Assembly (NCBI GenBank): GCA_018830405.1
Contig: JAHJSF010000055.1
Location: forward strand, 1-5,075
Length of the DNA: 5,075 bases
From: Nitrospinota bacterium
Lineage (GTDB): Bacteria > Nitrospinota > Nitrospinia > UBA9942 > JAHJSF01
Direction of reading: 5' to 3'
Position 1 is the stretch's first letter. Every line of letters begins with the position of its first letter. The translations under genes were made by a program, and so were the position numbers. The notes under the pieces are model-generated. The model was not told the DNA's origin. It saw only the letters and a list, made by a program, of their open reading frames with translations, and ran no database searches. This document shows positions 111-5,075 of this stretch, piece by piece.

Positions 111-614
111 ATGACCCACACTCTTACGCGAAGAGCCATAAAAGATTTATCGCAGGAATTATTGGATTTAGTAAAAAAGAGCTCTCCACAATTTTTTGAA
201 AGATTGGTAGTAGAGCTTTTGTTGTCTATGGGATATGGCGGTTCGCGTAAAGACGCCGGGCAGGCTATTGGTGGGAGTGGTGATGGCGGAATTGATGGAA
301 TAATTAAGGAAGATAAATTGGGCCTTGATGTAATTTATCTTCAAGCCAAACGGTGGGAAAACGTTGTTGGATCAAAAGAGATTAGAAATTTTGTCGGTAG
401 CCTTGTCGGCCAAAAGGCAAATAAGGGGGTATTTATCACAACCTCTGGATTCACAAAAGATGCCTTGGAGTATGTAAAAACAATTACCCATAAGGTTATC
501 TTGATTGACGGGGAAACATTGGCCAACCTTATGATTGAAAATAACGTTGGTGTTTCGAAGATAATTAGTTATGAGGTTAAAAAAATAGACTCAGATTATT
601 TTATTGAAGAGTAA
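111..614 (+). CDS. mrr: Mrr-type restriction endonuclease, catalytic domain only; 5' end replaced by an IS end
   Basis: This 167-residue protein is the nuclease half of an Mrr-type (type IV) restriction endonuclease, a family that cuts modified foreign DNA. Residues 10-45 match the helix leading into the domain, with SPQFFERLVVELL followed by MGYGG. The PD-(D/E)xK core is visible: E30, the glycine-rich GSGDGGIDGII with D62, and QAK at 78-80. The rest of the fold (GVFITTSGFT, then a VILIDGETLANLM strand-helix) is complete to the stop. Full-length Mrr is about 300 residues with an N-terminal winged-helix DNA-recognition domain, which is absent here. Residues 1-9 are translated from the ISL3 end, so the natural N-terminus was apparently cut off by insertion. 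The frame is intact and has an IS-derived binding site and start, so it may still be expressed, but loss of the recognition domain makes normal function doubtful. A natural stand-alone nuclease domain is the alternative. Confidence 0.82.
   Translation: MTHTLTRRAIKDLSQELLDLVKKSSPQFFERLVVELLLSMGYGGSRKDAGQAIGGSGDGGIDGIIKEDKLGLDVIYLQAKRWENVVGSKEIRNFVGSLVGQKANKGVFITTSGFTKDALEYVKTITHKVILIDGETLANLMIENNVGVSKIISYEVKKIDSDYFIEE
112..137. repeat. Probable terminal inverted repeat (right) of the ISL3 element
   Basis: This 26-bp segment sits between the transposase stop and the start of Mrr homology and ends in GAAGAGCC. It contains a small perfect palindrome, CTCTT-ACGCG-AAGAG (121-135). The inner boundary is approximate because the matching left repeat is not in the window. 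The segment is also translated, as residues 2-9 of the downstream open frame. Confidence 0.6.
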
Positions 615-769: not shown

Positions 770-859
770 GGAGAGGTGACCGAGAGGCCGATGGTGCTCG
801 CCTGCTAAGCGAGTGTTCGTTAACACGAACCGAGGGTTCGAATCCCTCCTTCTCCGCCA
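770..859 (+). tRNA. tRNA-Ser (anticodon GCU), CCA encoded
   Basis: The full class II cloverleaf can be folded by hand. The acceptor GGAGAGG pairs with CTTCTCC (one G-U). The anticodon stem is CTCGC/GCGAG (797-801/809-813), with loop CTGCTAA giving anticodon GCT at 804-806. A long variable arm (GTTCG/CGAAC) is present, typical of tRNA-Ser. The T arm is GAGGG-TTCGAAT-CCCTC, the discriminator base is G, and CCA is genomically encoded (857-859). It reads AGC/AGU codons. The next tRNA downstream does not encode CCA. Confidence 0.97.
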
Positions 860-894
860 TATTAATCGTTTGTTTTATAAGTAGTTTTTCTCTA

Positions 895-1055
895 GTGTTT
901 AGTTGCCTAAGTCTGCGTCAGTACCAAGACCGAGAATTTGGCGCGGCCAGCACGAAGACAACCGCAGCCATAGCAGGGCCTATGGCGAGGATTGACGACA
1001 AAGTCGGGCGTGTCAAAGGCCGGTCGACTACAGCAAGATTTAGGCAATTAAGCAC
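895..1055 (+). repeat. 161-bp palindromic structured repeat, copy 1 (MITE-like or mobile RNA element)
   Basis: The ends are 20-bp imperfect inverted repeats, 895-914 (GTGTTTAGTTGCCTAAGTCT) and 1036-1055. They pair throughout, with three mismatches that are all G-U wobbles when the + strand is read as RNA. Nested inside are further helices: CGGCC 944-948 with GGCCG 1018-1022, CACG 951-954 with CGTG 1009-1012, and a perfect 7-bp hairpin GCCATAG/CTATGGC (967-973/980-986, loop CAGGGC). The first 58 bp recur at 5018-5075 with four differences. No protein-coding signal is convincing in it. It occupies most of the gap between the two tRNA genes. Candidates are a non-autonomous transposable element or a mobile structured RNA such as a solitary HEARO/omega-RNA. 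The family assignment is not established from this window, but the repeat itself is certain. Confidence 0.85.
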
Positions 1056-1077
1056 CAGGTAAACTGCGATATTTTAG

Positions 1078-1151
1078 GCGCCCATAGCTCAGATGGATAG
1101 AGTAGCGGATTGCGATTCCGTTGGTCAGAGGTTCGACTCCTCTTGGGCGCA
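1078..1151 (+). tRNA. tRNA-Arg (anticodon GCG)
   Basis: The 74-nt cloverleaf has acceptor GCGCCCA/TGGGCGC, a D arm GCTC-AGATGGATA-GAGT with the arginine identity base A20, and an anticodon stem GCGGA/TCCGT (1105-1109/1117-1121). Loop TTGCGAT places the anticodon GCG at 1112-1114. The T arm is AGAGG-TTCGACT-CCTCT and the discriminator is A at 1151. CCA is not encoded. The anticodon reads CGC, and CGU by wobble. Most bacteria instead use ACG deaminated to ICG, so GCG is notable. A T6 run (1156-1161) follows. dnaX starts 40 nt downstream, and no separate promoter is evident in between. Confidence 0.93.
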
Positions 1152-4014: not shown

Positions 4015-5025
4015 ATGGAAACAAAGGTTGTAGAGATGAAGAATGTTAATGAGTTCGGGTTTTACGAAATCCGAATGGAGAGTATCGGCGGCCAAGGGGC
4101 CAACCTGGCCGGTAAGGTACTTGGTGAAGCGGGTGTCCTCAATATGGGGATTAACGGCCTAAACTTTTCGAGCTACGGTTCTGAAAAGAGGGGCGCCCCG
4201 GTTAAGGCCTTTGTCCGTTTTGCCCCGGCCGGCAAGGAGATATATGTAAACAGCCCGGTTGAGAGACCGCAGTTGTCGGCCATATTCCATGAGCAGTTGA
4301 TTAAGACGGTACCAGTAATGGCCGGTGTTACGCCTGAAACGGTTATTATTGTAAATACCGCCAGAACACCTGATGAGATGAGGGATGTTCTTAAAATGAA
4401 CTCGGGGAAGATTGTCTGTATCGATGCCCTTAAGATTGCCATGGAAGAGGGGACCAGGGTTAATACCGCCCTTCTCGGAACGATAGCCAAGTTTTCAGGT
4501 TTCATAGACCCGGAGGCGGTCAAGGCCTCCATAAGCCATAACCTTGGTAAGAAGTATGCCAAGCTGGTTCCCCCCAACCTGAAGACATTTGACAGAGGTT
4601 ATAACGAAGGGGTTTTAAAAGAGTTTGCCGATGATGGTAAGTATCCGCCGGTTGATGCCTGCGGTGGGGTAGCCTGCCAGAAGATAGGCTATCTGAATCA
4701 GCCGATAGGCGGGGTTATTCCCGTTGCCGGCACGAGTATTCAGAAGGATCTAAGCCCCAGCCGTGAGGGGTGGATTCCTGTTCTCAACAAGACCAACTGT
4801 AAGGATTGCGGTGAGTGCGATATTACCTGTCCTGATATGACATTTGAATGGACGGACGGTACTAACGCCCTCGGAAAAGAGGGAAGAGTGTTAGTAAGAA
4901 TAAATTATCAATATTGCAAAGGCTGCCTGCGTTGCGTGCAGATGTGTAAATTTGACGCCCTTCATGCCCACAAAGAGGCCGAAGTGGATGAAGAGATTTT
5001 GAAAAAAGGATTTACCCGTGTTTAG
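4015..5025 (+). CDS. 2-oxoacid:ferredoxin oxidoreductase, fused gamma-delta subunit
   Basis: These anaerobic enzymes (pyruvate, 2-ketoglutarate or isovalerate type) interconvert a 2-oxoacid plus CoA with acyl-CoA, CO2 and reduced ferredoxin. Residues about 16-195 form the gamma domain: GGQGANLAGKVL (25-36), SSYGSEKRGAPVKAFVR (52-68) and VNSPVERPQ (78-86). Residues about 235-336 form a delta-type ferredoxin domain with two 4Fe-4S motifs, CxxCxxCxxxCP at C262, C265, C268 and C272, and CxxCxxCxxxC at C301, C304, C307 and C311. The linker carries two more cysteines, C216 and C221. I chose ATG 4015 (336 residues) because AAAGGTG (4002-4008) precedes it; an upstream ATG at 3982 would add 11 residues and lacks a binding site. 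Alpha and beta subunits are not in the window and are probably downstream. Substrate is undetermined, with pyruvate likeliest. The stop codon lies in the start of repeat copy 2. Confidence 0.92.
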   Translation: METKVVEMKNVNEFGFYEIRMESIGGQGANLAGKVLGEAGVLNMGINGLNFSSYGSEKRGAPVKAFVRFAPAGKEIYVNSPVERPQLSAIFHEQLIKTVPVMAGVTPETVIIVNTARTPDEMRDVLKMNSGKIVCIDALKIAMEEGTRVNTALLGTIAKFSGFIDPEAVKASISHNLGKKYAKLVPPNLKTFDRGYNEGVLKEFADDGKYPPVDACGGVACQKIGYLNQPIGGVIPVAGTSIQKDLSPSREGWIPVLNKTNCKDCGECDITCPDMTFEWTDGTNALGKEGRVLVRINYQYCKGCLRCVQMCKFDALHAHKEAEVDEEILKKGFTRV

Positions 5026-5075
5026 TTGCCTAAGTCTGCGTCAGTATCAAGACCGAGAATTTGGCGCGGCTGGCG
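5018..5075 (+). repeat. 161-bp structured repeat, copy 2 (truncated by window end)
   Basis: These 58 bp match 895-952 with four differences (copy-1 positions 924, 948, 949 and 952). The match begins at GTGTTTAG, and upstream sequences of the two copies are unrelated, so the element edge is at or within a few bases of 5018. The repeat starts inside the last codons of the oxidoreductase gene and supplies its TAG stop (5023-5025). Two of the four differences fall in predicted helix positions, where C-to-T (948) and A-to-G (952) would change a Watson-Crick pair to G-U rather than break it, if the missing 3' half matches copy 1. Confidence 0.88.

What the first reader, a model, noticed from the sequence alone, without database searches (positions are those of the whole stretch)
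895..1055. Two-copy structured repeat: possible mobile RNA element
A 161-bp unit with 20-bp terminal inverted arms and at least three nested helices sits between two tRNA genes. Its first 58 bp recur in the same orientation 4.1 kb away beside an unrelated gene. It has no credible coding frame. The size, internal helices, solitary occurrence and gene-edge position fit a mobile structured RNA such as HEARO, the RNA partner of IscB nucleases (omega-RNA), or a non-autonomous MITE-type element. I favour neither firmly. If it is an omega-RNA, the bases just 5' of each copy would act as guides.
Basis: partly seen in the sequence, partly recalled or inferred. Interest (0 to 1): 0.62.

Follow-up and report, generated by a model that had tools for sequence, protein, structure and literature searches.

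The report
Widespread mobile RNA-like hairpin repeat
The stretch is one of about fifty copies of a small non-coding hairpin repeat in this bacterium's genome, and it belongs to a scattered family found in several bacterial phyla whose stem sequences change freely while the folded shape and a short tip motif stay the same, as expected of a tiny mobile element that is recognised as a folded strand.

Summary
Window 895-1055 is one of about 50 copies in this 1.42-Mb draft genome. The second "58-bp" copy is a whole element cut by the contig end. The + strand folds into one long hairpin (z -7.4 as RNA; minus strand -2.1), with compensatory changes above all controls. A model built only from other genomes recovers 23 copies here, including this one. 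So it belongs to a homologous family also present in Ca. Fischerbacteria, Syntrophales, Geobacteraceae, other Deltaproteobacteria and Nitrospirae-labelled genomes: variable but paired arms, near-invariant tip. One Geobacteraceae copy carries the palindrome reported for 24 "predicted short RNA elements" of Geobacter metallireducens (PMC2700814). HEARO/omega-RNA is not supported: no Rfam match, no HEARO in the genome. It is not a GTAG REP, and no target-site duplication is seen. Best reading: a non-autonomous, MITE-like element selected as a folded strand, moved by an unidentified enzyme. A resident RAYT/TIRYT transposase has its own, unrelated ends. Transcription and function were not tested.

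The parts
895..1055 (+). Complete 161-nt hairpin element (the finding)
895..914 (+). 5' arm (terminal inverted repeat)
   Evidence: pairs with 1036-1055; compensatory changes across copies; arm found at about 50 genomic sites
1036..1055 (+). 3' arm (terminal inverted repeat)
   Evidence: as above
958..999 (+). Conserved apical core ACAACCGCAG-CCATAG-CAGGGC-CTATGG-CGAGGATTGACGAC; apical stem 967-973 with 980-986
   Evidence: invariant or nearly so in 26 copies; shared with elements of other phyla
892..894 (+). 5' junction CTA (consensus CYA across copies)
   Evidence: position -3 C 74%, -2 Y 94%, -1 A 94%
1056..1058 (+). 3' junction CAG (consensus YAR across copies); no target-site duplication
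   Evidence: +1 Y 97%, +2 A 83%, +3 R 77%; left/right match no better than shuffled for 2-12 nt
5018..5075 (+). Second copy of the element, cut by the end of the contig
5023..5025 (+). TAG stop codon of the upstream porG-like gene, supplied by the element
770..859 (+). Flanking tRNA-Ser(GCT) gene (context)
1078..1151 (+). Flanking tRNA-Arg(GCG) gene (context)

Best explanation
A non-autonomous, MITE-like dispersed element of 161-206 nt whose + strand is maintained as one long imperfect hairpin: freely varying but base-paired arms, inner helices and a sequence-conserved tip. Shown: many intergenic copies; conserved junctions CYA|element|YAR without target-site duplication; covariation; strand-specific folding; homologous families in several phyla; absence from the orthologous tRNA-tRNA spacer of two relatives. 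Inferred: an enzyme supplied in trans recognises the folded single strand, as RNA or as single-stranded DNA (arms by shape, tip by sequence), and pastes it between genes. The mobilising enzyme is not identified. Transcription and any host function are unknown.
For: At least 40 copies, 46 by model, arms at about 50 sites. Covariation in this genome: 10 pairs and 24 cells with changes on both sides, 0/500 shuffles and every slid control below; across phyla 36 of 61 pairs and 173 cells, 0/500. R2, built without any sequence of this genome, finds 23 copies here, window copy 45.6 bits, E 6e-8. + strand folds better in all 26 copies of A1 and all 23 of A2 (4 shared); G-U outnumber A-C cells 119:21 and 79:25. 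No duplication, fixed junctions. Patchy: 7 of 77 genomes of the phylum; from about 3 to 93 matches in named MAGs of other groups. Orthologous tRNA-Ser/tRNA-Arg/dnaX loci in two genomes of the same order lack it. Internally deleted copies with intact ends, and one element inserted in the core of another. No orientation bias to co-directional genes (11 same, 13 opposite).
Against: No autonomous copy with a transposase between these ends was found: arm matches in the own genome are all within about 210 bp of each other or unpaired. The two orthologous spacers hold other small palindromes, so they show absence, not a clean empty site. The identical deletion in two Fischerbacteria copies can come from recurrent slippage between AGCAAAA repeats, so it does not prove movement. 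The near-invariant tip is more than a pure end-recognised MITE needs. No target-site duplication, which most described MITEs have.
Confidence: 0.72

Rival explanations
1. Mobilised specifically by a Y1 (HUH) transposase of the RAYT/TIRYT kind, as REPs and TIR repeats are: the folded top strand is excised and inserted as single-stranded DNA at CYA/YAR. (A sub-case of the best explanation that names the enzyme.)
For: No target-site duplication and conserved flanks fit IS200/IS605-type chemistry; strand-specific hairpin; the genome holds one intact RAYT-like gene, NF047646 84.5 bits; Y1 genes in 5 of 7 element-bearing genomes against 22 of 70 others, p = 0.048. TIR-flanked RAYT genes with repeated TIR families are described (PMC3733652).
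Against: The resident gene is flanked by its own 28-bp inverted repeats GGGGTCAGGTCTTGCAATGCAACATTTC, unrelated to the element. Two element-bearing genomes have no detected Y1 gene, and five of the six same-order relatives have Y1 genes but no element. Strand asymmetry is much weaker with DNA than with RNA energies.
Confidence: 0.25
2. A transcribed structured RNA with a host function (small RNA or mRNA leader/trailer), dispersed by duplication, as proposed for the Geobacter relatives.
For: Strong RNA-type covariation, G-U bias, near-invariant tip across phyla; Geobacter homologue described as predicted short RNA elements in 5' regions (PMC2700814); intergenic regions that hold it are more often divergent than convergent, 12 to 3.
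Against: No orientation bias relative to neighbouring genes; no promoter-like site and no terminator-like site on its strand; about 50 copies next to unrelated genes; absent from most relatives.
Confidence: 0.15
3. HEARO / IscB omega-RNA or another RNA family already in Rfam.
For: Size, internal helices, dispersed occurrence.
Against: No Rfam hit at E up to 10 on the element, none at gathering threshold for relatives, no HEARO in the genome.
Confidence: 0.02
4. Tc1/IS630-type (DDE) MITE with TA target duplication.
For: Many junctions read (C)TA|...|TA(G).
Against: Left and right dinucleotides (TA or CA) are not correlated between the two ends of a copy: match 0.571 against 0.631 for shuffled; hairpin-wide strand-specific covariation is not expected.
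Confidence: 0.06

Closest known systems
24 'predicted short RNA elements' of Geobacter metallireducens (Additional file 4, PMC2700814)
   Same: Intergenic multicopy; central palindrome GRCGTAGCGCTGCTACGCC, whose reverse complement GGCGTAGCAGCGCTACGTC is the tip of a family member in a Geobacteraceae MAG.
   Different: Window copy has different arms and tip-stem sequence; the main text gives no structure family, no covariation and no link to other phyla beyond Desulfotalea; its alignment itself (a supplement) could not be read here.
Prokaryotic MITEs (review PMC10969869), e.g. Chunjie of Geobacter uraniireducens, QMITE2 of Coxiella
   Same: Short, non-coding, terminal inverted repeats, intergenic, high copy, hairpin-forming.
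   Different: Those carry direct repeats (target duplications); none seen here. Homology to Chunjie not tested (paper and sequence not held).
REP / RAYT and TIR / TIRYT repeats (PMC2817692, PMC3733652)
   Same: Palindromic, intergenic, strand-specific hairpins; IS200/IS605-type enzymes make no larger target duplications.
   Different: No GTAG/CGTC head, much longer, one hairpin per element, not found flanking the resident RAYT gene.
HEARO (RF02033) / IscB omega-RNA
   Same: Mobile-element-associated structured RNA of similar length.
   Different: No sequence/structure match, no HEARO in the genome.

Membership tests
MITE | short non-coding repeat with terminal inverted repeats, many dispersed copies | tested here: met
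MITE | target-site duplication / direct repeats (in young copies) | tested here: not met
   no excess over shuffled flanks for 2-12 nt
MITE | shares ends with an autonomous transposon | tested here: inconclusive
   no paired arms around a gene in the own draft genome; repeats break contigs, so it could be missed
HEARO / omega-RNA | match to RF02033 model | tested here: not met
HEARO / omega-RNA | associated iscB gene | not tested
   no genome-wide iscB search was run; none of the window genes is one
REP (GTAG/CGTC) | GTAG or CGTC tetranucleotide head on a short palindrome | tested here: not met
   ends are GTGTTTAG here, mostly AGGG or AGCG in relatives
RAYT/TIRYT-mobilised repeat | repeat flanks the transposase gene | tested here: not met
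   resident RAYT has unrelated 28-bp inverted repeats
Cross-phylum hairpin family defined here | homology to a model built without this genome | tested here: met
   window copy 45.6 bits, E 6e-8
Geobacter metallireducens 24-copy short RNA element | central palindrome GRCGTAGCGCTGCTACGCC | tested here: inconclusive
   exact in a relative of the family (L179); the window's own tip is CCATAG..CTATGG; original sequences not available here

The most novel reading that the evidence does not exclude
An element that spreads and is selected as an RNA: the transcribed hairpin, recognised through its invariant tip, is itself the substrate or partner of an unknown enzyme (for example reverse transcription into DNA, or an RNA-bound or RNA-guided transposase), making it a bacterial analogue of a SINE or an omega-RNA of a new type.
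Probability: 0.12. Interest if true: 0.85.

Novelty: new variant of a known kind. Interest (0 to 1): 0.55.

Why it matters
It ties scattered, unannotated repeats of several anaerobic bacterial phyla into one homologous family with a structure model, and its pattern (arms free to change if paired, tip nearly fixed, one strand preferred) points to a folded strand as the unit of recognition. That makes the question of which enzyme moves such repeats, and whether through RNA or single-stranded DNA, directly testable in culturable Geobacter.

Tried and rejected
HEARO/omega-RNA and all Rfam families. Target-site duplications of 2-12 nt. The resident RAYT as carrier of these ends. Inverted repeats of the element's kind around RAYT genes of relatives: none. 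An autonomous element revealed by unpaired arms or core-only matches: most core-only matches in G082 are contig ends. Phage, plasmid and viral-contig homologues: none. CRISPR repeats as source of the tip (GCGAGGATTGA resembles the Geobacter CRISPR3 repeat ...GCGAGGATTGAAAC of PMC2700814): GAGGATTGAAAC occurs in none of the 198 loci held. Integron attC site: rejected on anatomy (no RYYYAAC/GTTRRRY ends; from general knowledge). Literature searches gave no description of a cross-phylum family.

Full report
1. Observation. The window holds a 161-bp unit at 895-1055 between tRNA-Ser(GCT) and tRNA-Arg(GCG). Folded as RNA, the + strand gives one hairpin of -73 kcal/mol (z -7.4, 0 of 200 shuffles); the minus strand reaches -51 (z -2.1). 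With DNA energies the difference between the strands is small: -31.5 and -26.6 kcal/mol, z -3.7 and -2.7. The second copy at 5018 is not a 58-bp fragment: the contig ends at 5075.

2. Copy number. BLAST in the window's own 1.42-Mb, 185-contig draft genome (87% complete) gives 40 matches. A covariance model gives 46. The arm pattern hits at about 50 sites, against one forward and one reverse match for the reversed pattern. Several contigs end inside the element, so the true number is probably higher. About a third of the copies are 192-206 nt long because the tip is replaced by another palindrome (CCCCCTTATTCCCCCTTAACAAAGGGGG...), which also occurs elsewhere in the genome and sits in both orientations.

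3. Structure is conserved. In 26 copies, 97.9% of cells in the 55-pair hairpin form standard pairs; 10 pairs (24 cells) changed on both sides, above all 500 shuffles and all slid controls. Examples are GCCTAA...TTAGGC, GCATAA...TTATGC, GCACAA...TTGTGC and AGCCGC...GCGGTT. G-U cells outnumber A-C cells 119 to 21, and the + strand folds better in every copy. The pair count leans on a structure predicted from the + strand, but the slid controls and the other-genome model below do not share that weakness in full.

4. A wider family. Weak model matches in two genomes of the same class share the tip but not the arms. The tip pattern ACCGCAGNNATAGCANNGCTATNNCGAGGATTTTGCG found 17 loci in public genomes: Ca. 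Fischerbacteria RBG_13_37_8, Syntrophaceae, Syntrophus, Syntrophales, Geobacteraceae, other Deltaproteobacteria, a 'Nitrospinota' and a 'Nitrospirae' MAG; the last two are G007 and G014 of the window's own class (labels as in GenBank, the window's own name was not revealed). Nearly all of them, apart from one with masked bases, one cut at a contig end and one with a worn outer stem, fold into one long hairpin of about 180 nt. In 18 elements from other genomes, 36 of 61 pairs changed on both sides (173 cells; 0 of 500 shuffles), all in the two outer helices, while the two apical helices hardly vary. A model built from those 18 alone (R2) finds 23 copies in the window's genome, including this one at 45.6 bits, E 6e-8. 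That is an independent demonstration of homology. In the phylum 7 of 77 genomes have it; none of the six same-order relatives does. Named genomes hold from about 3 to 93 matches; some matches are the same element read on both strands.

5. Insertion. Flanks read CYA|element|YAR with no duplication of 2-12 nt. Wider-family ends read (C)YA|AGGG...CCCT|AAG or similar. The tRNA-Ser(GCT)/tRNA-Arg(GCG)/.../dnaX order is kept in two genomes of the same order, where the spacer is 93 and 79 bp instead of 218 and lacks the element; those spacers carry other small palindromes, so this shows absence rather than a clean empty site. One element in L043 sits inside the core of another. Copies with deleted tips but intact ends occur in three genomes.

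6. Relation to genes. Copies are intergenic. Between co-directional genes they lie in either orientation (11 same, 13 opposite); divergent outnumber convergent neighbours 12 to 3, against 3 and 6 among background pairs (a crude ORF caller, small numbers). In about ten copies, including the second window copy, the neighbouring gene's stop codon falls in the first eight bases of an element end. Six copies lie within 25 nt of a tRNA gene; whether that is enriched was not tested rigorously.

7. Mobiliser. The genome has one Y1 transposase gene, a RAYT-type protein of 283 aa. It is flanked by its own inverted repeats GGGGTCAGGTCTTGCAATGCAACATTTC, which fit the GGGGWSAS motif of TIRYT ends in PMC3733652, and no copy of the hairpin lies near it. 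Y1 genes are weakly associated with the element (5 of 7 against 22 of 70; p = 0.048, uncorrected for phylogeny). The mobiliser is therefore open.

8. Known or new. Rfam has nothing. [quoted passage not shown] metallireducens with central palindrome GRCGTAGCGCTGCTACGCC (PMC2700814); its reverse complement is exactly the tip of the Geobacteraceae element L179. That family was therefore seen before in Geobacter, without structure or wider relatives as far as could be read here. The window's version is a new branch of it.

9. Mechanism. Shown: dispersal, strand-specific hairpin, covarying arms, fixed tip, junction consensus without duplication. Inferred: recognition of a folded single strand by an enzyme in trans. 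RNA is favoured over single-stranded DNA by the G-U bias and by the much larger strand difference under RNA energies, but G-T wobbles in a strand-specific DNA hairpin are not excluded. Templated repair within the hairpin could also create compensatory changes without selection on RNA.

Noticed in passing
L028, L030, L031, L034-L039, L145-L150 inside elements; L003, L012, L016, L018, L038, L145 outside: A second dispersed palindrome (ACAACCCCCTTATTCCCCCTTAACAAAGGGGGATAGGGGGTTGTA) occurs on its own in the genome and has replaced or entered the tip of about a third of the elements, in both orientations.
   Followed up: partly
window 5018-5025; also L003, L007, L008, L017, L020, L026, L030, L031, L033: The element's ends supply the stop codon of the neighbouring gene in about ten copies (CTAG junction or TAG/TAA at end position 6-8).
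   Followed up: partly
L067 1369-2342: A TIRtron-like unit: intact 283-aa RAYT-type transposase between 28-bp inverted repeats GGGGTCAGGTCTTGCAATGCAACATTTC, the left one present twice.
   Followed up: partly
L194 818-910 and L196 878-956: In two relatives the orthologous tRNA-tRNA spacer holds other palindromes (e.g. AGTGAATAGTGGTTAGTGATTAG), so this spacer may be a favoured landing place for hairpin repeats.
   Followed up: no
L001, L004, L012, L016, L021, L037 (element edges): Six copies lie within 25 nt of a tRNA gene, on either side and in either orientation.
   Followed up: no
L113 759-940: A chimeric element whose left arm comes from a different arm type than its right arm and partly repeats the right arm inverted, suggesting arm exchange or templated arm correction.
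   Followed up: no
L026 near 1731 and L040 near 618: Another repeat around the second palindrome (GCATTCAAAATGATAACAAGGCG...), apparently a third dispersed family.
   Followed up: no
window 111-614: Small Mrr-type restriction endonuclease gene (PF04471, 127 bits) next to the tRNA-Ser gene.
   Followed up: no
G082 (genome of L109): 93 model matches in a 6.2-Mb deltaproteobacterial MAG, many at contig ends: the richest genome seen and the best place to look for an autonomous copy.
   Followed up: partly
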